Assembly (NCBI GenBank): GCA_963402885.1
Contig: OY727098.1
Span: forward strand, 2,289,001 to 2,353,000
Direction: 5' to 3'
Source of the DNA: Antedon bifida
Taxonomy: Eukaryota > Echinodermata > Crinoidea > Comatulida > Antedonidae
Length of the DNA: 64,000 nucleotides
In this document: piece by piece, positions 36,951 through 64,000 of the stretch
Layout of the letters: each line of letters starts with the position of its first letter
Numbering within the stretch: position 1 is the stretch's first letter
Made by a program: the position numbers and the translations under genes
The notes under the pieces: model-generated
What the model saw: the letters and a program-made list of their open reading frames with translations, nothing else
Told to the model about the DNA's origin: nothing
Databases searched by the model: none

Positions 36951-38057
36951 TGCATCATGTTCCGAAGAATTCTGGGAATGAATTCTTTTGGTTTTAGTGT
37001 TAAATCATAACATAGTTTGCTGAAATCAAATGATACAATTTGACTACCGCCAATATTGCACTTATGGAGACGTGGTCTAACTCTTTTACACACTACGTCT
37101 TTAGTGGATATTACATCGGTAAAGTTAAGGTTGTAGTTGTACGAAACTATTAGTTTGCCGCTCTTTCCACTTTTTTCTGAATCAAAACTGCTCAAACAAA
37201 CATTTGAAAGAAACGATTTAATTTTACGAAAAGCATCAAGATCTGATTGAAAATTCGGTCCATAATTCTTTACATGATCGTCAAAACGCCTCTTAAAATA
37301 GTCGTACAGTTTCATATCGAGTGCGTTCCAGTTACCAATCTTCAAAACAAGATCTTTCGACAACGACACCTGCGAATATCTCTTCTTTTTAGGAAAGTAT
37401 ACAATATCCTCAAATCGCCAGCACATCATCTTCTTCAATATTATTAACGATTCGTCAAACATTTCGGTTATCATAACGAAATCAAAATCTGTGTCTAATT
37501 TCTTAATTTTTGTATCAATGATTTCATTTGCATTAAGCGATGGATTAATTCCCAAATCCCTAATTTGATAATTATGAATAGCAAATTGCATTTTACTTTT
37601 TTTCCAGTTTAGGAATGGATGTTCCATCCATTCTCTTAATCTACTGGTTTTATTCCCTTTACGTCCTCCAATTGAAAAGTAATCAAAAGCTGATTCAAAC
37701 TGTGTTACTGGGTTTCGCAATATAGTTACATACGTTGTGTTTTTCTTCATAAATGAATCAAATACGTCTCTGTTGAATCTGGCGTGTATACTAAATACAT
37801 TATATTTATAATTAGTGTAATCTCCCTTGCGAATGCCCATTGGTGGAAATATTCTTCTTACAACATTGGTCGTTATGCTTTTGTCTGAAAAACTTAAACC
37901 TGTAATTGGCACGACAACTTGTAGTTTGTTCTGGAGAGCAAAGTTCTGCATTATCCACCAAATTGTTGATCCACCTGTTTTATGGGTCTTCAAAAAGACG
38001 ATGTTCTTCTTTGGTTCACATGTCTGTGCTCTATTGATCTGATTGGCATTATAAGCC
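36914..38057 (-). CDS. Galactose-3-O-sulfotransferase-like protein (Gal3ST family), main exon
   Basis: Predicted Golgi sulfotransferase moving sulfate from PAPS to a galactose-containing glycan or glycolipid. One exon encodes about 380 residues. The 5'-phosphosulfate-binding loop FLKTHKTGGSTI lies near the N-terminal end. The 3'-phosphate-binding segment TILRNPVTQFESAFDYF lies about 85 residues later. Downstream are DFVMITEMFDESLIILKK and a Cys/Trp-containing MMCWRFEDIVYF region typical of Gal3ST. The frame continues left of 38057 only through a polypyrimidine tract and a TTTTGTAG acceptor. The apparent Met at 38074 is therefore probably intronic, and the true N-terminus lies in another exon. 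The exon begins with the third base of a codon. Acceptor substrate is unknown. Confidence 0.85.
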
Positions 38058-38229
38058 CTACAAAAAAGTAACACAAACAGAATAAAGTATTTTCAAATAT
38101 TGTATTATTATTTGAGCAACCTCTTGTGTCAATGTCGTGATTAATTTATGCTACAAAGTATTAATTTATATATTATATATATTTATTTTAACGAAAATGT
38201 TTTGAAATTAGAAAAATAAGAAACTAATT

Positions 38230-46504: not shown

Positions 46505-46942
46505 ATGTTTTCATCTTCATCGAAGTATTTTTCACCGGCTTCATCTGATGGATTGTTGAATCTAAATGTTGGTGGACATTTCTACACGGCGCTTCGTTCA
46601 ACTTTAACTCGTTATCCAGATAGTATGCTAGGCAAAATGTTCAGCCCCACTCTGCCAACAATTGCACATCGTTACGAGTATGATCGATACTATATCGATG
46701 GAGATGGCCCAACGACACATTTTGACTTATCTGCGTCGATCACGACTCATCCTTCCTGATGGTTTTAAAGAGTGGAATATCCTGATTGCTGAAGCAGAAT
46801 TCTACCAACTTACAGATTTAGGAAAACTTATTATTACCGAAAGAAAGCGACAAAAAGAAGTAGATGTGTATAATTATATAGCAAGACATCAGGGTCTCGA
46901 ACTATCGAAGCGGGGGCTGTATCGAATGGTGCCTAGCTTTTA
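46505..46942 (+). pseudogene. KCTD-type T1/BTB gene broken by a 5-nt deletion
   Basis: The first frame encodes MFSSSSKYFSPASSDGLLNL followed by the T1 core up to YYIDGDGPTT. It then shifts: compared with the other array members, five bases (ATTTC) are missing after 46713. The downstream frame (LRRSRLILPDGFKEWNILI, AEAEFYQLTDLGKLI) stays open to a stop at 46942, about 50 codons past the T1 core. Both halves are otherwise clean, so the break is recent, polymorphic, or a sequence error. The tail after the T1 domain does not match the C-terminal domain of its neighbours. Confidence 0.75.
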
Positions 46943-47635
46943 ATATTAGAGAGAATTAAATACTCGACAATAATGTAGGCCTACTCTTGATGAATTAGAT
47001 CAATAGAGGCCTACTACGAAATATCTGTGCTTTTCAGAATTCAAAAGTCGTTCAAATTAATTAATTTTCTTTGTAATACTAATGAATAGAAATAAATGGA
47101 ATGTGTTTTCATTAATCAACGCTGTATCTACTAGTAGACATATTAATTGATGAGATCGTACCGTGGACAAATAAACATTATATAATCATTATATAATCAA
47201 GTACGTTTTCAAATTACAGGGGCAGTGACGTAATGGAGGTTAATAATAAATATAATATATTCATAGAAGTACTGATGAAGATCTGTGGCGACAATAGAAT
47301 GGACCCGAGACCTGACTATCTTCGACATTTAAATAATAGAAAGTGTGAAATATTTTGTTAGGTTAAATGTACGTTGTAAGATGTGTATGTTTATTGAAAA
47401 ATAGTTGTAGTTTTCTAAACTACTTTGTAATAGATAGATGTTAAATATAATTTATTTGAACACCCTTTTAAATATATTTTGAGAGAAGATAAGGAGATAA
47501 AAACAATCGGGTTTTTTTTTGTGGCAGACCATTTTTACCACCAGTTGAATTTATTGGATACAACATTATGCCATTATGTGTTACGTAATTTAATACTTGC
47601 CACCATATATATCAATATAATTATATTATTAAGAC

Positions 47636-47675
47636 AATATAAGGCCATACAAGTTGACTTTCAGTTAGTAGGCCT
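47636..47675 (+). repeat. 40-bp direct repeat, first copy
   Basis: ATATAAGGCCATACAAGTTG continuing to GTTAGTAGGCCTA is identical to 48397-48436, about 760 bp away. Confidence 0.85.
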
Positions 47676-48255
47676 AGTACATGCAGTTGTGTGCAGTTTC
47701 ATTCTTGTGGTTGACCATCATCGCTAGCATGTTTCAAACTTAAAATAATTGAATATTTAATTGCATGGAGTGAATGTTTACAATCAAAATACATGGTATT
47801 GTTTCCTATCGAATGAATGTTTTAGAATAAATCCCTCTAATGCATTATTTGTAACTCATTTAATTTGGATGACCTCTGCTTTATTATAAATAATAAAATT
47901 GATGGCCATACTACATTTGATCTGCACCATTCGTCCTGATATTGATTATTATTTAGCACCGCCATCAACACGAGTTACTACAGATTCCTGAGACTGGATT
48001 GAATGTAGATACTGTTGTACTAGGCCTATATCAAGTGTGTATCGCCACACCCAGTAAAAGTATGAAGTACCATACAACTAAACCGTAAATTTCGTATAAT
48101 TGATTTCCAGCACAAATGCCATTGAATGATTGAGAAAGTCCAATTTATCTTAATTAAGCTGCTATTTATATCTATATAAGCAAAGGATTTGTCTAAGATC
48201 AAATTCGCAATGTCGTGTTAGGTTATAGAGTACATCACTGACATGAATTATACGC

Positions 48256-48429
48256 ATGAAACGCCATATGTGCCAAAACGGACAAAAAGTCATTGCGATT
48301 CACATCGATAGCGATAAACTGTTTGAAGAAATAGATGGAATGGGTAAGTTGGTACTACTGAATCTATACAGACAGGTGGACTTTTATAAAATTATAAATA
48401 TAAGGCCATACAAGTTGACTTTCAGTTAG
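48256..48429 (+). CDS. Small open frame, possible degenerate KCTD C-terminal segment
   Basis: A 57-codon frame encodes MKRHMCQNGQKVIAIHIDSD then KLFEEIDGMGKLV. The segment IHIDSDKLFEEIDGMG resembles, loosely, the LDFTRTQLFGEINKIGF stretch of the array's C-terminal domain. A GGTAAGT donor-like site follows the GM codons. It could be an exon remnant or chance. Confidence 0.2.
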   Translation: MKRHMCQNGQKVIAIHIDSDKLFEEIDGMGKLVLLNLYRQVDFYKIINIRPYKLTFS

Positions 48430-49737
48430 TAGGCCTATTAATTTGTTTAATGCCGGCCAACTTGTAGGTCAGTTGCGTAGATTCCAATAGTTCAGGAATA
48501 TTTACATTTATTATATCATTTAAATGTTTACGTTTAAAGTAAATGTAATCTCTTATTAAAAATATCTAATTGCTTTATATTGTATGCGGCGTATTGAAAT
48601 GTGTGTATGTGTTTACGCCGAGGCCCTCTGTTTTTATTTGTATTTGTTGTAATTGTACTTTGACTATCATCATCATCTTTTTATATGAGACAGAATTACC
48701 TCGTGTGATAGTCGCACATGGGTTGGTCAGCAGCTGAAACACATGTTCACGTTATACCTTGTATGTGTAGATATGAACCTACTGACAGAGATATCGTGTA
48801 ATAAAGTATTTATTACATGAGCTATACTCGATTCTAGATGGCTTGCAATAGTCAGTTAGACTCTATCTAAGTGACAGCTGCAGAATCGGGTAATAGCTGT
48901 ATTTCTTTCTTAGATGTTGTGTGGAGGACGCTTAATAGTATTCCACATTTTCATCTTTTTCTAAATGAAGACCTAATATTATAGATTTCTAATTTAAGTA
49001 AGAGATACATATGTGTTTATCTGCAGTATGTTTACCATGTACTATTTAAGCAAAATAAGCATGTCATGGTTATAGGCCTATGTGAAAGTTATTTCAAGTT
49101 GTATAAATATGGTTTTCTCATTACTAGGCCAATATTAAAGTGTTTCGATACGATGTACATATCCTTAATGAAAGAGTGCTATTGTATTATTTCAATTATT
49201 CTTTTCCTTCTTTCCTGTATTTTATTGTAGCCTATGATAGTGGTTTGACAGAATGATGTTCAATTACCTTACACAATGAGAAAAAAAGTTATAGTATTAT
49301 GATAGGCCTAGGCTACCTGGATCACAGGAAATTAGGGGTTTAGGACAAAAGAAAGGTGTCTGCGTAGGAAAATTAGGCCTAAAAGGAAAGTACTTTGACT
49401 TTAAGAAATGAATATTTTAAAAAATGAATACGTTAAGAAAGGAATGTGTTAAGATGAATACGCCAAAGATATGAATACGTTAAGAAAGGAATGTGTCAAG
49501 AGAGGTGGGGGTTCAATTTCAAGTTTATATAATTTAGTCTGACTGCAATGAGTGTAGGCCTATATACGAGCGATCATTTGACAATACTTTGTATGTACTG
49601 TACTGTGTACTTGTATGCATGTTTGTACTTTATTATTATGTACGATTTTTTAAATTTGATAAAAGATATATGTACTGTATGCCTACACATTATAAAGATA
49701 AAAAAAGGGGGGAGGGTGCGAAAAAAGGTAATAGCTT

Positions 49738-49811
49738 ATATTTGTCATTGTGAAAACGTTGGAATTTTCCGAATATAAATAGCTTCTCTGATAGATTCCG
49801 GTTACCCTTTG
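49738..49811 (+). promoter_or_regulatory. Shared upstream block, short KCTD gene A
   Basis: TTTGTCATTGTGAAAACGTT, GGAATTTTCCGAATATAAAT and the ATTCCGGTTACC word also occur, diverged, upstream of the double-T1 genes (51827, 55968) and near-identically upstream of short gene B (53920). A TATATATATA run follows at about 49827. Confidence 0.6.
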
Positions 49812-49922
49812 CGTCTACAGCGTCCTATATATATACCAATGAATTCGGTAAACAAGTACAGTATTGGCTTAGACAGCAGTTTCAGCATTTTTGTGTGAAC
49901 CAATACATTGTTAATCTTAATC

Positions 49923-50402
49923 ATGGATTCACCGCTGGCTTTAACTTCTACCGCTGACGAACCGATGAATCTGAATGTTGGTGGAAGTTTCTACGACACA
50001 TTTCGTTCAACTTTAACTCGCTATCCAAACAGTAAGCTGGGTTTAATGTTTAGCAAAGACGATGGTTTACCACCAGTCCGCGACGATCGATATATAATCA
50101 ATGGAGACGGCCCAACTTTCAGACACATTTTGAATTTCCTGCGTCTATCAAAACTCAGGCTTCCAGATGGTTTTAAAGATTGGGATATCCTGATGGGTGA
50201 AGCGGCTTTCTACCAACTTCCACAGTTAAAAACACTTGTAACTGAAGAAAGAAGAAAACGAGGAGAATTTCGAACAACAATTGAAAAAACCTACCATCAA
50301 AGCGTCGACAATGACGGGAATGCGATCAACATAAATGGAAATTTTTCGCGTGAACTGACATTCACAAGAAACAGCTTAGCACAGCAGAATTGCGGAGATT
50401 AG
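49923..50402 (+). CDS. Short KCTD-type protein A (single T1/BTB domain)
   Basis: 159 aa from the start codon aligned with the other array members (an in-frame Met lies five codons upstream). The T1 domain is at residues 16-110: MNLNVGGSFYDTFRSTLTRY, GDGPTFRHILNFLR and KDWDILMGEAAFYQLP. KCTD T1 domains usually form pentamers and many bind cullin-3; neither is shown here. The C-terminal tail (about 45 residues, ending LAQQNCGD) is not the domain found in the double-T1 genes and I do not recognise it. It is the first gene of a duplicated unit; its paralogue is at 54101-54535. Confidence 0.8.
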   Translation: MDSPLALTSTADEPMNLNVGGSFYDTFRSTLTRYPNSKLGLMFSKDDGLPPVRDDRYIINGDGPTFRHILNFLRLSKLRLPDGFKDWDILMGEAAFYQLPQLKTLVTEERRKRGEFRTTIEKTYHQSVDNDGNAININGNFSRELTFTRNSLAQQNCGD

Positions 50403-50514
50403 CAACTGGTTTTGATAACGAGAAACTTCTAACAAGTCATAATGAAATGTGTTTATATTAATCAAAATACTATAGTAATAGGCCTATACAGCGAACTGAT
50501 GAAACCACAATACG

Positions 50515-50582
50515 TCAACGGGGAAACTGGCGATCTGAAATTCTGAAAACGGAATTGGCACAGAATTACGGGGACTGTAGTA
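50515..50582 (+). repeat. Partial duplicate of the short gene's 3' coding end
   Basis: CTGGCGATCTGAAATTCTGA through GGCACAGAATTACGGGGACT and TAG aligns with the end of the preceding coding region (50349-50402). A similar product would end ELAQNYGDC. It lies about 115 bp beyond the stop codon and is preserved in the second unit at about 54660-54720. Confidence 0.6.
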
Positions 50583-51826
50583 GTATAGTATCTTGTCGAT
50601 ATTTTGATGATGATAATTTAAAGTTCGCAAGATATCTAAATGAACTTTTTAAATCAACCTGATTGTAACCTATGTTAACTATAATATGGAATTAAGTGTC
50701 TACTTGCAGTCTATTTGGAAAAGAGGCAATGTATATAGTGGGAGAACTTTTTAGTCAGGGGACAAGAAACTGCAGATTTTTTTTTCTGGATATCAGTACC
50801 GATATAGAACCGTACGATATACCACCGGTAGCTAGAGTTAGAACTTAAACGATTTAAAAGAATGGAGAAAGCTATCAACATCACGTAAAACTCATCTGTA
50901 TCCATTGTTAGCGTTATATGTTTGTTTAGTCATTTTATGTATACTGAAGGCATATGATGTTGGCAATGCCCACTTGAGTAAAGGGCTTGTAAGACTATAT
51001 AAGTTATGTGGCATATCCATGAGTTACTAAAAGAATATAGTTACTCGAGTATATACTATAATTGTATGTTATTGTACCGCTAGTAAACAATTATATAGTT
51101 ACGGTCTGCAGTAATTGCAGTGGAATAAGTTTGACATGATCCTTTGCCTAAATTTACCAGTTTATAATTTTAGTATAAAATATAGAATCTCAGCAGACTG
51201 AAATTATGAATAAAACCAAATCAGAATCTTTACAATAGTATCATTAAAAGAATGCAAAAAAAAAATTATGAATCATATATTTTAGTTTAATTTTTTTTTG
51301 TATATTGTTTTAAAAAATATATTTATACCATTGTATCAAGCATGTCATAGGTCAAATTACAGATAGGCCTATAGGCCTAAATGTGGTTTTGTCATTAAGA
51401 CCTGGGAAAATATTAAGGAACTATTAAGTCTTTTATAGGGTCCTGAATGAATGTCGTATGGAACATTGTGGTAGAAACCGAATTAATATAACTTATATAT
51501 ATATATTATATTTTACTTAACATATGAAAATAATGCATATACAAACTCTATATAGAGTATGCAAGTAGCCTACTTAATAAATAACTTTAAGAAAATGCTT
51601 ATTTGTGGTGATATTTGTTTTTCTCTCTAGGCCTATAGGCCTATGCGTTCACCGCAAGCAATTATTGAATGTAAAATTATCTTGGAAATAAACGATAATT
51701 TGGTACGCTATCTAGAAAACACATGATCCCGCAGACCTTCTTTGACAACATTCTCACTCCAATATTTTAACGTATGAAATGTTTATGAAGAGAGTTAATG
51801 TGAATATAGTAGGGCCTAGCTAATTA

Positions 51827-51900
51827 TTTTTGTCACTGTAAATAAACGTTGGAATTTCTGAACATAAAAGGCCTAATCTGTATAATCCGGTTACCAAAGA
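51827..51900 (+). promoter_or_regulatory. Shared upstream block, double-T1 gene A
   Basis: TTTTTGTCACTGTAAATAAA, CGTTGGAATTTCTGAACATA and TAATCCGGTTACC align with the block upstream of the short genes, suggesting a common ancestral promoter. Confidence 0.55.
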
Positions 51901-52025
51901 CGGGGGGACCAAAGTCCAAAGGACCCGGAATTGATTGTCAGTCAAAACTATATAGTTTTCACAGCCTGTGACTAACAACAGCGTTCAGAAGTTTACGTTC
52001 TATCATTTTGATTTATCTCATAATC

Positions 52026-53030
52026 ATGGAGTCACCATGGACTGTAACGTCTGCCACTAACGAACTATTGAATTTAAATGTTGGTGGACATTTCTACACG
52101 ACAACTCGTTCAACTTTTACTCGTTATCCGGATAGTATGCTAGGCAAAATGTTCAGCAGCGACAGTAGCTTACCGCCAGCACGCCGAGACGATAACAATC
52201 GATATTATATTGATGGAGACGGCCCAACATTTCGACACATTTTGAATTTCTTGCGTCGATCAAAACTCATCCTTCCTCGTGATTTTAACGATTGGGATAT
52301 GCTGACGGCTGAGGCGGATTTCTACCAAATTCCAGAGTTGATTCAACTTATTGTTGAAAGAAGTAAACAAGATGAGGTTCATTCTTCTGCCACTGACGAG
52401 TTATTGAATCTAAATGTAGGTGGAAATTTTTACACGACAAATCGTTCTACTTTAACACGTTATCCAAAAAGTAAGCTGGGCCTCATGTTTGGTGGACACT
52501 TACCAACAGCACACCGAGACGATAGTAATCGATATTATATCGATCGAGACGGTCCGACATTCCGATACATTCTAAATTTCCTGCGTCAATCAAAACTGGT
52601 CTTTCCTCATGGTTTTAAGGATTGGGATATTCTGATTGCTGAGGCAGATTTCTACCAAATTCCGGATTTGGTTAAATTTGTTAGCGAAAGAAGAAAGGCT
52701 AACAATAAATCGCTGTTGGAAGTTCAATTAGTTTACAAAGCAGCATCTGTTGAGGCAAAGAAACTTAACTACTGTTGGAAAGTTTATGGCCAACCTAAAT
52801 TCCTCGATCAATTGCCATCTATAGTAGGTTTCAACGGACGTAAGGACTTGAGGATCCTAAAGAAAGAAGATATAGAATGCTCAGATTTTACTAGATCACA
52901 ATTGTTTGACGAGATAAGTAAAATCGGTTTTACATTAATTAATACAGTATCTACAAGCAGCAGTAATGTGAATCTTGGTGGATACTTTGACGGCAAAGAT
53001 AGGTGGATATTTATGAAAGACGACATGTAA
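52026..53030 (+). CDS. Double-T1 KCTD-like protein A
   Basis: 334 aa, single exon as seen. T1 domain 1 is at residues 14-112 (LLNLNVGGHFYTTTRST ... AEADFYQIPELI). T1 domain 2 is at 125-222 (LLNLNVGGNFYTTNRST ... AEADFYQIPDLV). A C-terminal domain at 228-334 includes LLEVQLVYKAA, CSDFTRSQLFDEISKIGF and DGKDRWIFMKDDM. That domain resembles, by eye, the H1-type C-terminal domain of KCTD8/12/16 (F-x-x-LF...GF...S-x-x-x-x-N...DKIW). Start chosen at the Met aligned with the paralogues; six codons upstream there is another in-frame Met. It differs from copy B at 16 residues by hand count. Two T1 domains in one chain could change ring stoichiometry, but that is inference. Confidence 0.85.
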   Translation: MESPWTVTSATNELLNLNVGGHFYTTTRSTFTRYPDSMLGKMFSSDSSLPPARRDDNNRYYIDGDGPTFRHILNFLRRSKLILPRDFNDWDMLTAEADFYQIPELIQLIVERSKQDEVHSSATDELLNLNVGGNFYTTNRSTLTRYPKSKLGLMFGGHLPTAHRDDSNRYYIDRDGPTFRYILNFLRQSKLVFPHGFKDWDILIAEADFYQIPDLVKFVSERRKANNKSLLEVQLVYKAASVEAKKLNYCWKVYGQPKFLDQLPSIVGFNGRKDLRILKKEDIECSDFTRSQLFDEISKIGFTLINTVSTSSSNVNLGGYFDGKDRWIFMKDDM

Positions 53031-53322
53031 CAAGAAAGAAAGTACTGTACTTTGTACTTTTAAAATATTATATAAATATAACTTCAAAAGAATCTCAAAA
53101 CAATTATTAACATAATGCATAAAAAAACACATCTTAATTTATTATGATATTATGTAAAAATGTGAAAAAAAAATAAGACAGTGGAAATACGGTGCCTTAA
53201 TTATTTCACAAAATCTTTAGAAATTAAAATGCATTCATTGCGAAAAAACAGGAAATAATGAACTAAACATCATAATAACAGTAGACACATGCTTCTCATC
53301 AGGGCCGGCCTACTTTTAATGT

Positions 53323-53508
53323 TAATCTTTGTCTACACTATCAAACTAGTTTGACAAAAAAAGTTCGATGTGCCCAAATACGGTTACGAAGTACGACGCT
53401 CAAGTAATTTGACTAATCACAAGTGATGAATTATTCGAATGGCTTAATTTTGGTCAACTCGCTTACGTTACGCTTCGTCCTTTTGTTGCGTCTAGTAGAA
53501 CTTAGCAT
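53323..53508. mobile_element. Chimeric MITE: left half family 1, right half family 2
   Basis: AATCTTTGTCTACACTATCA, then GATGTGCCCAAATACGGTTA is family 1. From about 53395 the sequence is family 2 (GACTAATCACAAGTGATGAA, TTGGTCAACTCGCTTACG, GCGTCTAGTAGAACTTAGC). The left breakpoint position matches the family-1 MITE at 57521 in the other duplicated unit. Confidence 0.65.
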
Positions 53509-53514
53509 GAGTCG

Positions 53515-53692
53515 AAAAGGCAATATTGTTAAGAAATGAATATGCAAAAATCTGATTAAGTTAAGAAATGAATATGCTAAAATATCATGATTAGTCCTAT
53601 GTTAAGAAATGAATATTTTTTTTAATGAATAAGTAAAGAAAGAAATGTGTTAAGATATAAATACGTTAAGAAATGAATGTGTCAAGAGTGGT
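53515..53692. repeat. Imperfect GTTAAGAAATGAATATG-type tandem repeat
   Basis: Several units of GTTAAGAAATGAATATGC and GTTAAGAAATGAATGTGTCA precede the second duplicated unit. A shorter run at 49400-49500 precedes the first. It may mark the duplication junction. Confidence 0.6.
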
Positions 53693-53919
53693 GGGGGTTC
53701 AATTTCAAGTTTATATAATTTAGTCTGACTGCAATGAGTGTAGGCCTATATACGAGCGATCATTTGACAATACTTTGTACTGTACTGTGTACTTGTATGT
53801 TTGTACTTTATAATATGTACGAATTTTTAAATTTGATAAAAGATATATGTACTGTATGCCTATACATTATAAAGATAAAAAAAGGGGGGAGGGTGCGATA
53901 AAAGGTAATAGTTTATTTT

Positions 53920-53992
53920 TGTCATTGTGAAAACGTTGGAATTTTCCGAATATAAATAGCTTCTCTGATAGATTCCGGTTACCCTTTGCGTC
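53920..53992 (+). promoter_or_regulatory. Shared upstream block, short KCTD gene B
   Basis: Near-identical to 49738-49811, including CGAATATAAATAGCTTCTCT and ATTCCGGTTACC. Confidence 0.6.
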
Positions 53993-54100
53993 TGCAGCGT
54001 CCTATATATACCAATGAATTCGGTAAACAAGTACAGTATTGGCTTAGACAGCAGTTTCAGCATTTTTGTGTTAATCAGTACATCTTTGTTAATCTTAATC

Positions 54101-54535
54101 ATGGCTTCACCACTTGCTGTAGCTGCTTTAACGTCTACCGTTGACGACCCGATGAATCTGAATGTTGGTGGAAGTTTCTACGACACAGTTCGTTCAACTT
54201 TAACTCGCTATCCAAAAAGTAAGCTGGCTTTAATGTTTAGCAAAGACGATGGTTTACTACCATTCCGCGACGATCGATATTTTATCGATAGAGACGGCCC
54301 AACATTCAGATACATTTTGAATTTTCTGCGTGATCAATCAAAACTCAGGCTTCCAGATGGTTTTAAAGATTGGGATATCCTGATGGATGAAGCGGATTTC
54401 TACCAACTTCCACAGTTAAAAACACTTATAGCTGAAGAAAGAACAAAACGAGGAGAATCTCGAACAAAAATTGAAAAAAACTACAACATGACATTCACAG
54501 GAAACAACTTAGCACAGCAGAATTGCGGAGATTAG
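54101..54535 (+). CDS. Short KCTD-type protein B (single T1/BTB domain)
   Basis: 144 aa, paralogue of 49923-50402. The T1 domain includes MNLNVGGSFYDTVRSTLTRY and RDGPTFRYILNFLR. A one-residue insertion gives FLRDQSKLRLP. The tail lacks an internal segment of about 18 residues present in copy A but keeps the LAQQNCGD end. An upstream in-frame Met at 54014 would add 29 residues; the aligned Met is preferred. Confidence 0.78.
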   Translation: MASPLAVAALTSTVDDPMNLNVGGSFYDTVRSTLTRYPKSKLALMFSKDDGLLPFRDDRYFIDRDGPTFRYILNFLRDQSKLRLPDGFKDWDILMDEADFYQLPQLKTLIAEERTKRGESRTKIEKNYNMTFTGNNLAQQNCGD

Positions 54536-54654
54536 CAACTGGTTTTGATAAGGAGAAACTTCTAACAAGTCATAATGAAATGTGTTTATATTAATCAAAA
54601 TACTATAATAATATATAGCGATAGGCCTATGACTGATGCATCCACAATACATCA

Positions 54655-54722
54655 ACGGGGGAACTGGCGATCTGAAATTCTGAAAACGGAATTGGCACAG
54701 AATTACGGGGACTGTGTAGTAG
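54655..54722 (+). repeat. Partial duplicate of the short gene's 3' coding end, unit B
   Basis: GGGAACTGGCGATCTGAAAT through GGCACAGAATTACGGGGACT; counterpart of 50515-50582, again beyond the stop codon. Confidence 0.55.
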
Positions 54723-55967
54723 TGTTCGAAACTATAGTCATCTTGTCGATATTTTGATGATGATAATTTAAAGTTCGCAAGATATCTATGAACTTTTTAA
54801 ATCAACCTGATTGTAACCTATGTTAACTATAGTACAATTATGGAATTAAGTGTCTACTTGCAGTCTATTTGGAAAAGAGGCAATTATAGTGTATAGTGGG
54901 AGAACTTTTTAGTAGTCAGGGGACAAGAAACTGCAGAGTGTATTTTTTTTGGATATCAGTACCGATATAGAACCGTACGATATACCACCGGTAGATAGAG
55001 TTAGAACTTAAACGATTTAAAAGAATGGAGAAAGCTATCTACGTCACGTAAAACTCATATGTTCTATTATTGTTAGCGTTATATGTTTGTTTAGTCATTT
55101 TATGTATACTGAAGGCCTATGATGTTGGCAATGCCCACTTGAGTAAATTAGGGCTTGTAAGACTTTATAAGTTATGTGGCATATCCATGAGTTACAAAAA
55201 TAATATAGTTACTCGAGTATATACTAAAATTGTATGTTATTGTACCGCTAGTAAACAATTATATAGTTACGGTCCTGCAGTAATTGCAGTGGAATAAGTT
55301 TGACATGATCCTTTGCCTAAATTTACCAGTTTATAATTTTAGTATAAAATATAGAATCTCAGCAGACTGAAATTATGAATAAAACCAAATCAGAATCTTT
55401 ACAATAGTATCATTAAAAGAATGCAAAAAAAAAATTATGAATCATATATTTTAGTTTAATTTTTTTTTGTATATTGTTTAAAAAAATATATTTATACCAT
55501 TGTATCAAGCATGTCATAGGTCAAATTACAGATAGGCCTATAGGCCTAAATGTGGTTTTGTCATTAAGACCTGGGAAAATATTAAGGAACTATTAAGTCT
55601 TTTATAGGGTCCTGAATGAACGAAAATTGTGGTAGAAACCGAATTAATATAACTTATATATATATATTATATTTTACTTAACATATGAAAATAATGCATA
55701 TACAAACTCTATATAGAGTATGCAAGTAGCCTACTTAATAAATAACTTTAAGAAAATGCTTATTTGTGGTGATATTTGTTTTTCTCTCTAGGCCTATAGT
55801 ATGTTCACCGCAAGAAATTATCAAAAGTAAAATTATCTTGGAAATAAACGATTTGGTACGCTATCCAGAAAACACATGCTACCGCAGACCTTCGTCGACC
55901 ACATTCTTACTCCAATATTTTAACGTATGAACTGTTTATGAAGAGAGTTAATGTGAATATAGTAGCT

Positions 55968-56040
55968 TATTTTTGTCACTGTAAATAACGTTGGAACATA
56001 AAAGGCCTAATCTGTATAATCCGGTTACCAAAGACGGGAC
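55968..56040 (+). promoter_or_regulatory. Shared upstream block, double-T1 gene B
   Basis: TTTTTGTCACTGTAAATAAC, GTTGGAACATAAAAGGCC and TAATCCGGTTACCAAAGAC; counterpart of 51827-51900 with small deletions. Confidence 0.55.
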
Positions 56041-56168
56041 CAAAGTCCAAAGAACCCGGAATTGATTGCGAGTACAGTCAAAACTATATAGTTTTCACAG
56101 CCCGTGACTAATTCAAGCACAAGAGCGTTCAGAAGTTTACGTTCAATCTTTTGATTTATCTCATAATC

Positions 56169-57173
56169 ATGGAGTCACCATCGACTGTATCGTCTGCCAC
56201 TAACGAACTATTGAATCTAAATGTTGGTGGACATTTCTACACGACAAATCGTTCAACTTTAACTCGTTATCCAGATAGTATGCTAGGCTTAATGTTTAGC
56301 AGCGACAGTAGCTTACCGCCAGCACGCCGAGACGATAATAATCGATATTATATTGATGGAGACGGCCCAATATTTCGACACATTTTGAATTTCTTGCGTC
56401 GATCAAAACTCATCCTTCCCCATGAATTTAACGATTGGGATATGCTGACGGCTGAGGCGGATTTCTACCAAATTCCAGAATTGATTCAACTTATTGTTGA
56501 AAAAAGTAAACAAGATGAGGTTCATTCTTCTGCCACTGACGAGTTATTGAATCTAAATGTAGGTGGACATTTTTACACGACAAATCGTTCTACTTTAACA
56601 CGTTATCCAAAAAGTAAGCTGGGCCTCATGTTTGGTGGACACTTACCAACAGCACACCGAGATGATAGTAATCGATATTATATCGATCGAGACGGTCCGA
56701 CATTCCGATACATTCTAAATTTCATGCGACAATCAAAACTGGTCTTTCCTCATGGTTTTAAGGATTGGGATATTCTGATTGCTGAGGCGGATTTCTACCA
56801 AATTTCAGATTTGGTTAAATTTGTTAGCGAAAGAAGAAAGGCTAACAATAAATCGCTGTTGGAAGTTCAATTAGTTTACACAGCAGCATCTGTTGAGGCA
56901 AAGAAACTTAACTATATTTGGAAAGTTTATGGCCAACCTAAATTCCTCGATCAATTGCCATCTATTGTAGATTTCAATGGACGTAAGGACTTGAGGATCC
57001 TGAAGAAAGAAGATATAGTATGCTCAGATTTTACTAGGTCACAATTGTTTGACGAGATAAGTAAAATCGGTTTTACATTAATTAATACAGTATCTACAAG
57101 CAGCAGTAATGTGAATCTTGGTGGATACTTTGACGGCAAAGATAGGTGGATATTTATGAAAGACGACATGTAA
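56169..57173 (+). CDS. Double-T1 KCTD-like protein B
   Basis: 334 aa, same architecture as 52026-53030: T1 domain 1 at 14-112, T1 domain 2 at 125-222, C-terminal domain at 228-334. It differs from copy A at 16 residues by hand count, spread over all domains, for example Phe to Leu at 31 and Lys to Leu at 41. The frame is intact over the full length despite the duplication. An in-frame Met lies six codons upstream of the chosen start. Confidence 0.85.
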   Translation: MESPSTVSSATNELLNLNVGGHFYTTNRSTLTRYPDSMLGLMFSSDSSLPPARRDDNNRYYIDGDGPIFRHILNFLRRSKLILPHEFNDWDMLTAEADFYQIPELIQLIVEKSKQDEVHSSATDELLNLNVGGHFYTTNRSTLTRYPKSKLGLMFGGHLPTAHRDDSNRYYIDRDGPTFRYILNFMRQSKLVFPHGFKDWDILIAEADFYQISDLVKFVSERRKANNKSLLEVQLVYTAASVEAKKLNYIWKVYGQPKFLDQLPSIVDFNGRKDLRILKKEDIVCSDFTRSQLFDEISKIGFTLINTVSTSSSNVNLGGYFDGKDRWIFMKDDM

Positions 57174-57520
57174 CAAGAAAGTTTTAAGTTTGTACTTTTA
57201 TTATAAAATATTATATAAATATAACTTCAAAAGAATATCAAAACAATTCTAATTAACATAATGCATAAAAACACATCTTAATTTTGTTATGATATTATGT
57301 TAAAATAGGAATAAAATAAATAAGACAGTGAAAATACGATGCCTAATTTCACAAAATCTTAGAAATTAAAATGCATTCATTGCGACAAAAATAGGAAATA
57401 ATGAACTAAACATCATAATAACAATGTTTTTGTTTCCTTCTTTTTTCAGAAATAAGTTAACAATGTAACCCTGATCTTAGTAGACACATGCTTCTCATCA
57501 GGGCCGGCCTACTTTTAATG

Positions 57521-57662
57521 TTAAACTAGTTTGACAAAAAAGTGTGATGTGCCCAAATACGGTAGTGATATACCCAAATATGGTAGTGATGACATCATCA
57601 TTTCCATATATGGGCACATCACATTTTTACCACATAAAGTTTGATAGTGCAGACAGAGCTTT
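57521..57662. mobile_element. MITE, family 1, missing its outer left terminus
   Basis: Starts within the terminal repeat (AAACTAGTTTGACAAAAAAG) and ends GATAGTGCAGACAGAGCTTT. It has a duplicated GGTAGTGAT core. It occupies the same place relative to the double-T1 gene as the chimeric MITE at 53323. Confidence 0.8.
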
Positions 57663-58149
57663 AGGCTTTATTTTATGCATTTGATCATTTTCATTCCAAA
57701 TATTCATAGGGTATGTGTTTTGCCGTTTATATTGTCTTTAAATACTGTAGGCCTACTACTATTGAACCATCTTTTACTTGAAATTACTAAAATAAATATA
57801 CTATTGTTTAAAACGTGGTTTTGCGTATGTCTATTGCAATGCGTGTGTGGTGGGCGTTTGGGGAATATGTTAAAACAACAATATTTAATAAATTTACTGA
57901 AAATCAAAGTTTATATAAAATTGATATATTCATCGGCACCACCACCTTAAAGATTACTATTTACAAATACCTTATTTAAAAAATATTATTCATGGAGGAG
58001 GGATAGTCATGAAAATGTCACATTAGATAATAATTGTAGCCATTCATCAGAGCAGGAGAAATAAGTTGAGACTCTATATGGTCGGAGGAAGTGGATAGAT
58101 ATTCATGGAGGAAGTGTAACCCGTTTCCTCTATAATATTATTTCCGCGT

Positions 58150-58278
58150 GATCTTAAACAAAAGAATTTGGGAAAAACCATAATGTGACGAATCAGTAAT
58201 GTGAATGATCTGATAATGTAGTATCGTTAGTCTGTGCTTTAACGGCAAGTATCCAGTATCATCCAGTAAAACCACAAG
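58150..58278 (+). promoter_or_regulatory. Upstream block and 5'UTR exon of the single-T1 gene at 58.4 kb
   Basis: CTTAAACAAAAGAATTTGGG is shared with 46.4 kb. The sequence TATCCAGTATCATCCAGTAA through ACCACAAG ends at a GTACGT donor (58279). An acceptor TTTTCGTAG ends at 58420, two bases before the start codon. The intron would be 142 nt. Confidence 0.55.
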
Positions 58279-58422
58279 GTACGTAGATAATTTATTTTAT
58301 GGGTTTTGTTGTTGATGGATTATTGATAACTTCAACTGGAATTTTATCTAATGAAATAACATTGTTATGTGAGACTAGCATCATGATTTCCACTTAATCA
58401 TAATCATCATGTTTTCGTAGAC

Positions 58423-59100
58423 ATGGCTTCATCTTCTGCAACCGAATTATTGAATCTAAATGTTGGTGGACATTTCTACACGACAACTCGTGCAACATTA
58501 ACTCGTTATCCAGATAGTATGTTGGGCTTGATGTTCAGCGCGGGCAAAGCCGGCGGCCAACAACCAGCACGCCGAGACGATAATAATCGATACTATATCG
58601 ATGGAGATGGCCCAACATTTCGACACATTTTGAATTATCTGCGTCGATCAAAACTTATCATTCCTTATGGCTTCAAAGATTGGAATATCCTGGCGGCAGA
58701 AGCAGATTTCTACCAAATTCCAGACTTGATTAGATGTATTAGCGAAAGAAGAAAGGGTACAAACCAATCCTTATTGGAAGTTCAATACGTTTACACAGCT
58801 GGAACTAGCATTGAAAAAAGAAAAACAAATTATTGGTGGAAAGTATGTGGCGAACCTAAAATCCTTGACAAATTGTCATCTATAGTAAAATTTGAAGACA
58901 GTTATGGTGATGATGTGAGAATAATGCGTAAAGACGATATGTTATGCTTAGATTTTACTAGGACACAATTGTTTGGGGAAATAAATAAAATCGGTTTTAC
59001 TTTCATTAGCACAGTATCTACAAGCAGTAGTAATGCTAATTTTCCTGGAAACTTCGACGGCAAAGACAGGTGGATATTTATAAAAGACAACAGTACCTAA
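58423..59100 (+). CDS. Single-T1 KCTD-like protein with C-terminal domain
   Basis: 225 aa. The T1 domain is at residues 8-107 (LLNLNVGGHFYTTTRATLTR, YYIDGDGPTFRHILNYLRR, AEADFYQIPDLI), with a Gly-rich loop SAGKAGGQQPARRDD. The C-terminal domain at 116-225 is homologous to that of the double-T1 genes (LLEVQYVYTAG, LDFTRTQLFGEINKIGF, DGKDRWIFIKDN). The start codon directly follows a splice acceptor, fixing the start. It may represent the ancestral one-T1 form from which the double-T1 proteins arose, or the reverse by domain loss. Confidence 0.85.
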   Translation: MASSSATELLNLNVGGHFYTTTRATLTRYPDSMLGLMFSAGKAGGQQPARRDDNNRYYIDGDGPTFRHILNYLRRSKLIIPYGFKDWNILAAEADFYQIPDLIRCISERRKGTNQSLLEVQYVYTAGTSIEKRKTNYWWKVCGEPKILDKLSSIVKFEDSYGDDVRIMRKDDMLCLDFTRTQLFGEINKIGFTFISTVSTSSSNANFPGNFDGKDRWIFIKDNST

Positions 59101-60590
59101 GAAGGATTCAATAACGTATTTACCAGTTCATACTTTAATTAAAAAATATAAAATATTAACAACTATAACATTACACAATGTCGGTGTTTAAAAATGATTC
59201 TATTAAAAAGCCCTGTTGATGTTGGATCAAATTATGGAAATGAAATAGGGCCTATGTTTTGTAATTACTATATTATATGCCAATAATTAGATAATTTTTA
59301 GATAATATTTGTCAAATCTTGTTTAAATTCATAGAGTTGGCCAAGTGTTAACAAATATATTCCTTTTTTCACCTATTGAAAATCTCTCGAAGAATAAGTA
59401 TTTTATGTGTATGTATGATAGTAATATAATAAAAGCATATGCGATTATTATTATATACAGTGGATACGATGATACTATAAACACTTGTACAATCAATTGA
59501 TACAAACTATATAATACCACCGGTACATTTATTGTGTTATACTTATAGAACTAAATAAAACTTTAGAATTTAAAATAGCAGCTATATTACGTAGCAAATT
59601 AAACTCATTATCTTTGTAAAAATATTACATATTATTCGGACATTATACAGTTGATTTGCATAATATTATTCAATACACTGTCCAATAAACAGCTTTAGAA
59701 CTAAAAGAAAACTCTCAATTTTGTGTTTTACTATAGTGCTGATGATTCGAGTTACATGTGTGGTGCTTTTTGAACAAGTAAGATATTTGGCAAACTTAAT
59801 AGCTATCTGATGAATATTGACGGATTAGATTTTTTTAGAAAGTAATGGTTAAAGATAAATTATGCCATAACAAGTTTTTCCTGAGGGCAGTAGAATACTT
59901 TAGAATAAATGTTTCGGAGATATGATCTGGCTTCATAAGAATGGAGCTAAACATTTCGTGGTTCGGGAATCCTCAATATTGAATTGCTAGATTTAGATCA
60001 TCAAGGTTTGGTAGGTTAACCTATAATCCCATGCAACAAAACAATATGCAAGGTGAGGCTGTGTTTGCTCATTAACTTTTATTTTCTCAGCAGAAAAAAA
60101 CCCCGTAGGCCTATAAAACAACATGAGAGCATAATATAATATGTATCTATCAGTGCTTCATAACAATGTCATTGGACGATAATAAAACAATCACAAGTTT
60201 ACTATAATATGGTCACTTCAGTCTAATTATTAATTAGTATTACTGTGATAAAATCAATGAACTTATACCTGATCCATACACCGAGTCATATTAGTAACCA
60301 CTACTACTAACTTCAAAATGCTTCTGTTGAAACAACGCTCACGCAGCCTATTCAATATAATGCTTCACCTTCATATGCAAATACGCCGGCGAATACCAGA
60401 ACAATAGCAATGCAATGCGATATATTGCGCCACCAATAATATAACAAAAAAAAACATACAGAAAATATTTATCAAGCTCAAAATTAAAAGTATTACCAAG
60501 AAACAGTTCTATTGCATTATTGCATAATCACATAATAAAGTACTAAAATATACCCTCACGCACAAACTTTTTGAGGGCGATTTCTATGCT
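59101..60590. other. Non-coding stretch in the KCTD array
   Basis: No gene or recognisable element; AT-rich. Confidence 0.4.
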
Positions 60591-60593
60591 ATG

Positions 60594-60680
60594 ACGAAAA
60601 TTACTATAGGCCCTATAGTAATTTTCGTTAACCTAACGAAATTCATATCTACAGTGTAGATATGAATTTCGTTAGGTTAA
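60594..60680. repeat. Two adjacent perfect palindromes (17-bp and 26-bp arms)
   Basis: Palindrome 1: arms 60594-60610 and 60612-60628 (ACGAAAATTACTATAGG and its complement) around one C. Palindrome 2: arms 60628-60653 and 60655-60680 (starting TTAACCTAACGAAATTC) around one G. Both are perfect by hand comparison and share one base. They could extrude as cruciforms. Confidence 0.9.
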
Positions 60681-60708
60681 TGGGTTGAGTCTAGCTGATA
60701 TTAGGCCT

Positions 60709-61920
60709 ATGCATATTCTACTGTTCGTTTCTACACTCAATAAGCAAATACCATGTTCTGTGTCACATCCTATGTTTTATTCCTAGAATTGTTTTAACTG
60801 CTGTAACATCAGTCATTATCAATAGTTGTATTGTACAGAATATGTATTTCCTTGAACACGGTAAGTGGTTAACTGCACCTTTTATATTAAATAAATTAAT
60901 CAGCCATTCAAACATATGTATTACAACAAAGGGTTTATGTCCAGAGACAATAACCTGAGGAAATAACAAAAGACTAAACACTATATTATCTGAAACCAGA
61001 GAAGAGTGAAATTGTCACTCTTCCCTGCTGAACCTAACCCTGTGATTGGAAAACTAAAGCAAACATTCAGTCAAACAGCCTGCTGCCGAAAACCGTTGAC
61101 ATAACGTATTTTTAGAAGAGGTAATAATAGTGAGAGAAGGCAATCATCATGCAAACTGTTTATCGACTTACTATCGCATGGATAATTATGTGGGATACTG
61201 ACCAGTGCCTGATCAGATATTTGGATGCATTATAAAATTAATATTATTTAAATACGGTTACAGATGTAACCTTTGACATCATGGTAAACAAAAGTTTTTT
61301 TAAATACGACAAATATTACAAAATGCGACGACGTAACAAACATCCGATAGGAAACTTTTTACTTGAATTTACAATACAACAGTTTCCACAATAAGTTATA
61401 AATATGAATTTATTTGAGCTCAAATATTAAAATGTTACCATATTAATTTATAATGCTTCAAATACAGTATCTTCGTACCTCTTCTACAAATTTCTTTTAG
61501 CAAGCAAGCCGTTTGACTGAATGTTTACTACTTTGTCAATTCCAATCGGAAAAAGGTTCGCCCATATTAAAGGGTTAGGTTCAGATAATTAATATTTAGG
61601 TTTTAGACATGAAACAGCCCGCAACTTATTGTTTCTGGACATTAAACAGTACGAGAATCGCCTTTGACATGTTGTTTTACCACATTTATTTCATTGGTTG
61701 ATTAATTGATTCAAAAAATAAAAAGTACAGTTAACCACAGTGTTCAAGGAAAAGGTTTTCCGTACAATTCAACTATTGATAAATTGATTGATATTAAATG
61801 ATGACGCAGCATTCTAGGAATAAAACATAGGATGTGACACAGAACATGTGAATACATCTTTGTTTTATGTGTTTACTTATTGAGCGTAGAAACTAATTAT
61901 TTACAGTAGAAAATATGCAT
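60709..61920. mobile_element. 1.2-kb fold-back element with arms of about 400 bp
   Basis: The left arm (60709-61125) and right arm (about 61455-61920) are imperfect inverted copies through most of their length. Shared blocks are ATGCATATT...CTACTGT at the ends, CTCAATAAG, CATGTTCTGTGTCACATCCT, ATGTTTTATTCCTAGAAT, CCTTGAACAC...GGTTAACTG, ACATTCAGTCAAAC and CTGAACCTAACCCT. The spacer is about 330 nt. No transposase frame is visible. Confidence 0.75.
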
Positions 61921-62099
61921 AATCAGGTTGTGACATTTGACCCTTCCTAAGTTTCTGAGTTTCAAAATAAAACTTAAAAGAATATTTTAATAATGAACAG
62001 CTTGGAATATCAGTTTAATTAAGTTATTTTACAATATTGTTTTTTGATGTTATCTTGTTTTATATGTATTTTCTTGTTTTTCCATTTTTACTGCGTCCA

Positions 62100-62285
62100 A
62101 CTTAATCATATATTATACTAGGCCCAACCACTCAATTTTTCAGTTAATACGGATTGGACCCCATTGGAAATAAGTTTACTTTTTATTTGTCGACTTAATG
62201 GGTTATCCTGGTATTCTTTTTTTAATATGTACATTGTATATTTTAACTATTTTTATGAATATCGAATAAAATCAATCAATCAATC
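62100..62285 (+). mobile_element. LINE 3'UTR fragment with (ATCA)n tail
   Basis: GGATTGGACCCCATTGGAAA, CTTAATGGGTTATCCTGGTA and the final AATCAATCAATCAATC resemble the 3' end of a CR1/L2-type LINE, which typically ends in short tandem repeats. Only the 3' end is present. Confidence 0.55.
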
Positions 62286-62589
62286 CGATTAAAACTACGC
62301 CGTGTCTATATCTGTTCAATAGTAGGAGCTGGATAATGTCTGTTTACTGAAAAATTCCAAAAGAACGGTTTACTTCGAAAATCGGTTTCGATCGCGTGTC
62401 TCCATTTTTTTAAACCGAAATTTGAAGAGATTCAAGATCGGAATCAATTAAAGTTTTTAAACCGTATTTTAAACTTGTGTTGCGTGGATTTCTTATCTTA
62501 TTTTCATCAAATGACGGGAAAATTATCTTTAATCACAAAGACCAAATTTTAGTTGAAACTAATGACGGGAAAATAATCACAAAGATCGA

Positions 62590-62975
62590 ATTCTAGTTGA
62601 ATCTAAATTCTGGTGGACATTTCTAACGACAACTCGTTTAAATCCAAAAAGTAGGCTACGATGTTCTTAATGTTTCATGGACACTTATCACCAGCACACC
62701 GAGATGATAGTAATCGATATTATCGATCGAGAGAGTTCGACATTCCGATACATTTTTAGTATCGTCTATCAAACCACGTCCTTCCTCGTGGTTTAAAGAT
62801 CCACCCCGAGGGCTGGGGTGTTTCGGAAACAAAAATACCTCGGAAACATGAACAAGAATGAGAAGTTTTAGTGGGCGTCTCTGTTTTCGAGATTTCTAGA
62901 AAAGGTATTGTGTCTCTCTTTTTCCAACCACCAATGTGGCTGAGGCAGATTTCCACCAAATTCCGGATCAGCTAT
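62590..62975 (+). pseudogene. Decayed KCTD T1 copy interrupted by an insertion
   Basis: GTTGAATCTAAATTCTGGTG, CACACCGAGATGATAGTAAT and CGACATTCCGATACAT match the second T1 domain of the double-T1 genes. Several frameshifts and deletions are present, such as the loss of most of the LTRYP segment. After about 62800 an unrelated stretch of about 135 bp interrupts it. The match resumes at about 62939 with GCTGAGGCAGATTTCCACCA. No open reading frame survives. Confidence 0.75.
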
Positions 62976-62989
62976 ATTACCACGAAACC

Positions 62990-63151
62990 TTCTCTAAGAA
63001 AACAGAATATAGGAAAATAGAACATGACGCATCAGTGATTTGAATAATTTAATATAATATCCAATGAGCTTATAGATTTCCCGATCTATAGGTGTATATA
63101 AGTTTATTAGATATGTCTCATAAGTACAGTATCATCCAGTTCAACCACTAG
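62990..63151 (+). promoter_or_regulatory. Upstream block and 5'UTR exon of the last KCTD gene
   Basis: GAACATGACGCATCAGTGAT and GTATCATCCAGTTCAACCAC match the region before the 58.4-kb gene. The exon ends at 63151 before a GTAGGT donor; the acceptor TTTTCGCCAG ends at 63353, giving a 202-nt intron. Confidence 0.5.
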
Positions 63152-63355
63152 GTAGGTAGAGAATGTAATTTATGATTTTGATTTTGGATTACAATTTTTT
63201 GTTGGAATTTAAACAAACTATATTATTGTTTTCGTTAGGGCCTACTGTTTGGCATACGTATAGGCCTATTATAATTCGACGAATTTGTGGACGAATGAAG
63301 TTATCTTATATCTTTTTTCTCTTACTTAATCATAATATTCATGTTTTCGCCAGCC

Positions 63356-64000
63356 ATGGCCCCACCTTCTGCCACAGAAGTACTGCATCTAAATGTTGGT
63401 GGACATTTTTACACGGCAACTCGTGCAACATTAACTCGTTATCCAGATAGTATGCTAGGCTTGATGTTCAGTAAGAAGGGCAAGACAGTCGTCCAACCAC
63501 CACCCCAAGACGATAATAATCGATACTATATCGATGGAGACGGCCCAACATTCAGATACATCTTAAACTTCATACGTCGATCAAAACTCATACTTCCTAA
63601 AGATTATAAAGACTGGGATATGCTGACGGGTGAAGCGTACTTTTACCAAATTGACGAGTTGATTACACTTATTGGAAGTCAAAAAGATTCATCCTCTGGC
63701 GAATTATTGAATCTAAACGTTGGTGGACATTTCTACACGGCAAATCGTTCAACTTTAACTCGTTATCCAAAAAGTATGCTATACTCAATGTTCAGTAAGA
63801 AGGGCAAGACTGTCGTCCAACCACCACCCCAAGACGATAATAATCGATATTATATCGATCGAGATGGTCCGACATTTCGATACGTTTTGAATTTCCTGCG
63901 TCAATCAAAACTCATTCTTCCTGATGGTTTTAAAGATTGGGATTTGCTGGCGGCTGAAGCAGAATTCTACAAAGTTGAAGATTTGATGAAATGTATTGGC
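63356..64000 (+). CDS. Double-T1 KCTD-like protein C, cut by the window end
   Basis: 215 codons are open to the last base. T1 domain 1 is at residues 8-107 (HLNVGGHFYTATRATLTRY, YYIDGDGPTFRYILNFIRR). A short linker GSQKDSSSGE follows. T1 domain 2 begins at about 117 (LLNLNVGGHFYTANRSTL, YYIDRDGPTFRYVLNFLRQ, AEAEFYKVEDLMKCIG). Both domains carry the same loop SKKGKTVVQPPPQDD, unlike genes A and B, whose two domains differ there. The C-terminal domain expected next lies outside the window. The start directly follows a splice acceptor. Confidence 0.82.
   Translation, partial: MAPPSATEVLHLNVGGHFYTATRATLTRYPDSMLGLMFSKKGKTVVQPPPQDDNNRYYIDGDGPTFRYILNFIRRSKLILPKDYKDWDMLTGEAYFYQIDELITLIGSQKDSSSGELLNLNVGGHFYTANRSTLTRYPKSMLYSMFSKKGKTVVQPPPQDDNNRYYIDRDGPTFRYVLNFLRQSKLILPDGFKDWDLLAAEAEFYKVEDLMKCIG

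What the first reader, a model, noticed from the sequence alone, without database searches (positions are those of the whole stretch)
46505..64000. Local expansion of KCTD-type T1/BTB genes, with three architectures in one array
Eight T1-containing units lie in one orientation over 17.5 kb: short single-T1 with a unique tail, single-T1 with a C-terminal domain, and double-T1 with the same C-terminal domain, plus two broken copies. KCTD genes are usually dispersed and slowly evolving, so a fast-duplicating array with domain gain or loss is unusual and may be a lineage-specific family.
Basis: partly seen in the sequence, partly recalled or inferred. Interest (0 to 1): 0.75.

Follow-up and report, generated by a model that had tools for sequence, protein, structure and literature searches.

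The report
Feather-star KCTD gene array
A feather star (crinoid) has repeatedly copied one ordinary scaffold-protein gene of the KCTD family into local arrays, and in two of these arrays it separately evolved a form with two assembly (T1) domains in one chain, which makes a natural test of how such protein rings are built.

Summary
Eight T1 (BTB_2) units lie on the + strand at 46505-64330: two short single-T1 genes, three double-T1+CTD genes, one single-T1+CTD gene and two broken copies; the last gene ends 330 bases past the window. The genome is a crinoid close to Antedon mediterranea (inferred). Of 77 T1 matches in it, 63 lie in this array, three other clusters and one lone copy. The founder-type gene, on another contig, has full-length relatives in starfish, a brittle star, sea urchins and an acorn worm. 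In a full-length tree the Antedon and Anneissia expansions are separate clades, so the array is lineage-specific. A. mediterranea shares the short gene and two of the double genes. The double-T1 form arose at least twice (AU p 1.2e-4). In this array the first and second T1s differ in a fixed way in both species. The CTD resembles KCTD1/KCTD8/12/16 in predicted fold only; a CTD-only sequence search found nothing. Reading frames look constrained, but transcription could not be tested. Most likely these are soluble ring-forming KCTD scaffolds whose make-up is varied by copies lacking the CTD or carrying two T1s; function is inferred.

The parts
46505..46943 (+). broken single-T1 copy; T1 split over frames 2 and 3; no CTD found
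49466..53330 (+). first copy of the 4.15-kb tandem duplication (one short single-T1 gene + one double-T1 gene)
49923..50402 (+). short single-T1 gene (159 aa), T1 49965-50243, tail conserved in A. mediterranea P0062
52026..53030 (+). double-T1 + CTD gene (334 aa): T1a 52065-52355, T1b 52401-52685, CTD 52704-53021
53652..57430 (+). second copy of the 4.15-kb tandem duplication (right edge approximate)
54101..54535 (+). short single-T1 gene (144 aa); tail shortened by an in-frame 57-base gap relative to the 49923 copy
56169..57173 (+). double-T1 + CTD gene (334 aa): T1a 56208-56498, T1b 56544-56828, CTD 56844-57164
58279..58420 (+). putative 5'UTR intron (GT..AG) just before the ATG of the 58423 gene; read by eye, not tested
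   Evidence: sequence
58423..59100 (+). single-T1 + CTD gene (225 aa): T1 58447-58743, CTD 58750-59088
62657..62798 (+). T1 remnant (second-T1-like), broken; a further T1-like scrap near 62940 read by eye
63152..63353 (+). putative 5'UTR intron (GT..AG) before the ATG of the 63356 gene; read by eye, not tested
   Evidence: sequence
63356..64000 (+). double-T1 + CTD gene (324 aa), cut by the window end; stop at 64330; T1a 63380-63673, T1b 63704-63997, CTD at 64010-64318 outside the window

Best explanation
This is a tandem array made by local DNA duplication, in an Antedon-lineage crinoid, from a crinoid copy of an ambulacrarian soluble KCTD gene (one T1 plus one C-terminal domain, CTD). Shown: the T1 homology, a founder-type gene elsewhere in the genome, separate Antedon and Anneissia expansions, two origins of the double-T1 form, frame-preserving change in the duplicated pair, and a fixed difference between first and second T1 in the array doubles. 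Inferred: the proteins form T1 rings that carry CTDs and bind partners, as KCTD1 or KCTD8/12/16 do. Copies with a T1 and no CTD, or with two T1s per CTD, would then change ring stoichiometry and the number of partner sites per ring, by mixed assembly. The longer alpha2-beta3 loops of several T1s here suggest scaffolding rather than Cullin-3 adaptor work. That last step, and the kinship of the CTD with the KCTD1/KCTD8 group, are the weakest.
Confidence: 0.5

Rival explanations
1. Cullin-3 adaptors under recognition-type diversification: the T1 binds Cullin-3 and the fast-changing CTD or tail picks substrates, as in expanded MATH-BTB families.
For: 17 of the 19 other own-genome T1 rows keep a 15-residue loop. 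Short single-T1 pair: 7.6% coding divergence against 3.5% in flanking non-coding DNA, Fisher p 4e-4; dN/dS 1.2. MATH-BTB expansion in grasses is stated in the abstract start of PMC6883508 (listing). The CTD has no sequence match to the non-Cullin-3 group.
Against: The loop is longer than 15 in 7 of 9 array rows (18-20 in 5 of 9) and has two or three prolines in 5 of 9 against one in the founder; long or rigid loops mark known non-binders KCTD8/16 and KCTD1/15 (PMC10856315, Discussion read). The CTD's predicted fold is nearest the cluster-1 proteins, which do not bind Cullin-3 (PMC8699099 passages). Non-coding DNA next to the short gene diverges by 4.5-4.8%, so its excess is smaller than it looks, and gene conversion can mimic it.
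Confidence: 0.28
2. Neutral birth and death: duplicates arise by unequal crossing-over and decay, with no role.
For: Two of eight units are broken; in the contig-8 stretches read, units are 98.6-99.9% identical and several T1s are split or cut. dN/dS of the short pair is not below 1.
Against: Six frames are open; the short gene and two of the double genes have orthologues in A. mediterranea at 77-94% identity. Coding indels are 3 of 3 multiples of three against 8 of 33 in flanks, p 0.02, and the 334-aa pair has none. dN/dS 0.34 for that pair.
Confidence: 0.22

Closest known systems
KCTD1/KCTD15 and KCTD8/12/16 (structure cluster 1)
   Same: T1 followed by a CTD; KCTD1 is the best solved match of the family profile (E 3.5e-38); the nearest KCTD folds of the CTD model are KCTD8 H1 and KCTD1 CTD.
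   Different: 22-25% identity in the Foldseek alignments to KCTD1; the CTD alone has no sequence match; array copies with no CTD or with two T1s; GABA-B, G-beta-gamma or TFAP2 binding not tested.
KCTD6/11/21 (KCASH), the database label of many relatives
   Same: T1 is close: fish KCTD21-like P0050, P0051, P0127, P0143, P0153 are 41-60% identical over 41-63% of the query.
   Different: These fish matches cover about the T1 part only, and four of these five carry Pfam PF19329, which was not found in our frames.
KCTD19, the database label of P0001
   Same: More than one BTB domain in one chain.
   Different: KCTD19 has three BTBs and no clearly identified KCTD-CTD (PMC8699099 passages); ours have two close T1s and a CTD.
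Founder-type gene (own contig 10; A. mediterranea P0008; Anneissia P0006; starfish P0014, P0016; brittle star P0017; urchin P0107; Saccoglossus P0063)
   Same: Same T1-CTD plan; same 36-row clade in the full-length tree (97/94); own copy is one open frame.
   Different: Single T1, 15-residue loop, slow: 94.5% identical between the two Antedon-type genomes.

Membership tests
KCTD family | N-terminal T1/BTB_2 domain (PF02214) over Pfam's cut-off | tested here: met
   six open frames 50.6-131.1 bits against a cut-off of 21.4
KCTD family | no ion-channel domain after the T1 | tested here: met
   no ion-channel Pfam family among matches up to E 1 in the six open frames, the last one as far as the window goes; transmembrane helices were not predicted separately
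KCTD family | KCTD-type C-terminal domain | tested here: inconclusive
   four of six open genes have a CTD shared with other ambulacrarian KCTD genes, the two short genes none; link to known KCTD CTDs by predicted fold only, none by CTD-only sequence search
KCTD1/8/12/16 cluster | H1/KCTD1-like CTD fold | tested here: inconclusive
KCTD1/8/12/16 cluster | does not bind Cullin-3 | not testable with these tools
   only loop length and prolines were read
KCTD19 | three BTB domains, no KCTD-CTD | tested here: not met
   two T1s and a CTD; definition from PMC8699099 passages
Pentameric T1 ring | interface residues Asp78, Arg92, Ser/Thr43, Ser/Thr47 (KCTD1 numbers; from KCTD15 Asp104, Arg118, Ser69, Thr73 in PMC11041601 passages) | tested here: inconclusive
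   all four kept in 8 of 14 array-clade rows and 41 of 42 others, that 42 counting KCTD1 itself; of the 6, 4 lack Ser/Thr43, 1 lacks Asp78, 1 lacks Arg92
Lineage-specific expansion | array copies form one clade limited to the lineage | tested here: met
   T1 tree 94/99 (bootstrap just under the star level) and full-length tree 100/99 for this array; Antedon expansion 98/88

The most novel reading that the evidence does not exclude
The array encodes an obligate mixed ring. Each double-T1 chain fills two neighbouring places through unlike T1 faces (first T1: Asp or Asn53, Gly79; second T1: Lys53, Arg79), and the short single-T1 protein from the same 4.15-kb unit fills the odd fifth place (2+2+1), so that a five-place ring carries only two CTDs and two partners instead of five.
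Probability: 0.07. Interest if true: 0.7.

Novelty: new variant of a known kind. Interest (0 to 1): 0.42.

Why it matters
KCTD rings are mostly pentamers that also mix subunits, and the 2026 review PMC13361646 (passages) says that no experimental structure of a mixed ring is available. Here natural duplication has built chains with two T1s twice, once with a fixed charge difference between the T1s, next to T1-only partners. That gives ready-made proteins for asking how ring number and composition are set, and a case of rapid family growth in crinoids, for which the one search made (KCTD with crinoid, open-licence library) found no paper.

Tried and rejected
Kv channel origin: rejected, since no channel domain follows the T1. 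Weak Pfam matches below their curated cut-offs (for example UDG, Choline_bind_1 and Pertussis_S2S3) were not followed. KCTD19 orthology: rejected (two close T1s plus CTD). One origin of all double-T1 genes: rejected (test A p 1.2e-4; test B p 0.017; an earlier test left out intermediate rows and is not used). Whether the first and the second T1s of the array doubles form one clade each is not resolved (tests C and D, p 0.46 and 0.33); in the 63356 gene the two T1s share an identical loop, so conversion or a separate internal duplication cannot be told apart. Positive selection on the short gene: left open, since the excess is local, tested after the fact, and conversion is possible. Foldseek TM-scores by query length were low (0.22-0.31 in the 50 rows shown), as the domain orientation is unsure; domain-level alignment was used instead. 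Retroposition: no support, since the founder is also one open frame and two copies seem to keep a 5'UTR intron (by eye). Viral or mobile origin of the contig-8 unit: two viral-contig scans found no relative, and a paper search for a remembered link of CLCC1 to mollusc herpesviruses found no paper. Promoter scans and RNA-family searches were not run.
Full report
What is there. Six are open frames with a start and a stop: short single-T1 genes at 49923 and 54101, double-T1+CTD genes at 52026, 56169 and 63356, and a single-T1+CTD gene at 58423. Two are broken (46505, about 62657). The 63356 gene ends at 64330, just outside the window, with its CTD. The T1 repeats and the 4.15-kb duplication of a short+double pair are seen directly in the DNA.

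Where it is. The window is on contig 11 of a 315.6-Mb genome in 27 contigs. A genome search with PF02214 gave 77 matches (81 candidates, all scored; counts are lower bounds): 41 in a contig-8 array at 22.26-22.48 Mb, 9 at contig 15 13.60-13.64 Mb, 3 at contig 15 12.41 Mb, 1 at contig 15 0.89 Mb, 9 here, and 14 elsewhere (the 41 recounted). Of the contig-8 array I read 22256000-22345999 (units 1, 2 and part of 3) and 30 kb near its right end. Same-register pieces of 600 bases or more are 98.6-99.9% identical to unit 1, a unit being about 33 kb. Seven unit starts can be counted; the middle was not read.

Relatives. Three protein searches gave 61, 42 and 165 hits, of which 61, 42 and 120 were listed. 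Among these the array's own orthologues are only from A. mediterranea: P0001 (310 and 314 of 334 identical to the two 334-aa proteins), P0002 (287 of 324 to the 63356 protein) and P0062 (122 of 158 and 118 of 143 to the short proteins), all listed with a record of 31,698,884 bases, so probably one chromosome. No A. mediterranea protein closest to the 58423 gene was identified. The short protein's tail is conserved in P0062, so the 'unique tail' looks like real coding sequence. Anneissia japonica, another crinoid, has its own set. Founder-type relatives occur in starfish, brittle star, sea urchins and Saccoglossus. Patiria (3), Asterias (3), Acanthaster (2) and Diadema setosum (2) list family members with one and the same record length, so small local clusters may exist outside crinoids too.

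Trees. A T1 tree of 55 rows and 94 columns has few columns and many open forks, but groups the array (14 rows with A. mediterranea) at 94/99. It left out T1 matches short of about 85 positions, contig-8 copies beyond the first unit, four divergent dispersed loci, and all protein hits but 23 named ones. A full-length tree of 53 chosen rows and 238 columns gives crinoids 100/100, founder genes outside the expansion, the Anneissia expansion 98/84 and the Antedon expansion 98/88; it has long outer branches, with a warning. Gene conversion within a genome could sharpen such species-wise clades. The second T1 (and CTD) of the contig-15 double-T1 gene groups with a single-T1 copy of contig 8 (100/100 in both trees), its first T1 falls in an open fork, and an AU test rejects uniting its T1s with this array (p 1.2e-4). 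The double form therefore arose at least twice here. It is not unique in nature: P0013, a metagenome protein, has two T1s as well, though no CTD of this type was detected in it.

Selection. Between the two 334-aa copies dS is 0.069, dN 0.024 and dN/dS 0.34. Between the two short copies dS is 0.070, dN 0.084 and dN/dS 1.20, on 6.5 synonymous and 25.5 non-synonymous changes. The short gene differs at 32 of 423 aligned bases, flanking non-coding DNA at 80 of 2281 (p 4e-4), and the 334-aa gene at 33 of 1005 (p 0.84 against non-coding). The non-coding DNA beside the short gene is at 4.5-4.8%, and this test was chosen after seeing the data. Indels: 3 of 3 in the short gene keep the frame, 0 events in the long gene, and 8 of 33 non-coding events are multiples of three.

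Interface and loop. PMC11041601 (passages) gives the KCTD15 inter-subunit contacts of Asp104 with Arg118, Ser69 and Thr73; the equivalence of KCTD15 Gly88 and KCTD1 Gly62 stated there places these at KCTD1 Asp78, Arg92, Ser43 and Thr47 (my count on the chain printed). In one search (55 rows plus KCTD1) all four types are kept in 8 of 14 array-clade rows and 41 of 42 others, that 42 counting KCTD1 itself. Both T1s of the two 334-aa genes keep them. Lys53 occurs in 6 of 55 rows, all in this array clade: 5 of 5 second T1s of the doubles and the 54101 protein. Gly79 is in 5 of 5 first T1s and Arg79 in 5 of 5 second T1s; Arg79 is also found in rows outside the array, KCTD1 among them. The contig-15 double shows no such difference at either place. 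Whether residue 53 touches a neighbour was not established. The alpha2-beta3 loop has 15 residues in 17 of the 19 other own-genome rows (one 12, one 16) and 16, 18 or 20 in 7 of the 9 array rows. PMC10856315 (passages, Discussion) ties long or rigid loops to lack of Cullin-3 binding, and PMC11041601 reports that a Gly88Asp change in this loop gives hexamers.

How it most likely works. Shown: duplication history, domain plan, constraint in the duplicated pair, and the fixed T1a/T1b difference. Inferred from the KCTD family: ring assembly through T1, partner binding by the CTD, mixed assembly among close paralogues (hetero-oligomers are frequently observed, PMC13361646 passages). Committed reading: a set of ring scaffolds whose CTD dosage is varied by copies with no CTD or with two T1s per CTD, somewhat more likely G-protein or transcription-factor type scaffolds than Cullin-3 adaptors.

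Novelty. No paper in the held open-licence library holds both 'KCTD' and 'crinoid'. 'KCTD' with 'two BTB domains' gave two papers, seen as listings only, neither about this by title and abstract start. Earlier searches (20 of 26, 12 of 12, 12 of 24 and 15 of 69 papers listed) listed none whose title or abstract start is on KCTD arrays in echinoderms. Passages of PMC9658877, PMC5664961 and PMC7618933 were also seen as background on rings.

Noticed in passing
G000 contig 8, 22256000-22345999 and 22456000-22485999 (L019-L027, L029-L031): A larger and younger KCTD array in repeat units of about 33 kb (98.6-99.9% identical where compared); unit 1 also holds retrotransposon-like frames and several long open frames on both strands. 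Of seven such frames scanned, one is like a CLCC1/MCLC channel (PF05934, E 3e-16) and the others have no Pfam match over its cut-off. Two viral-contig scans found no relative.
   Followed up: partly
window 7061-7501 (-) and 13772-14110 (-), with 13233-13529 (-): Two nearly identical frames with the start of a cyclophilin-type gene (PF00160) and a further cyclophilin exon beside the second: a local duplication in the same window.
   Followed up: partly
window 36914-38089 (-): Long open frame of a galactose-3-O-sulfotransferase (PF06990, E 1.9e-50).
   Followed up: no
window 24628-24951 (-): Frame with an arrestin C-terminal domain (PF02752, E 6.5e-14), so an arrestin-domain gene probably lies there on the - strand.
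   Followed up: no
window 17857-18476: Stretch open in several frames on both strands with repetitive translations; looks like tandem-repeat DNA, not a gene.
   Followed up: no
P0003, P0004, P0005 (A. mediterranea and Anneissia): Database proteins with a T1, CTD-like sequence and then a further T1; may be fused gene models of neighbouring copies rather than real chains.
   Followed up: no
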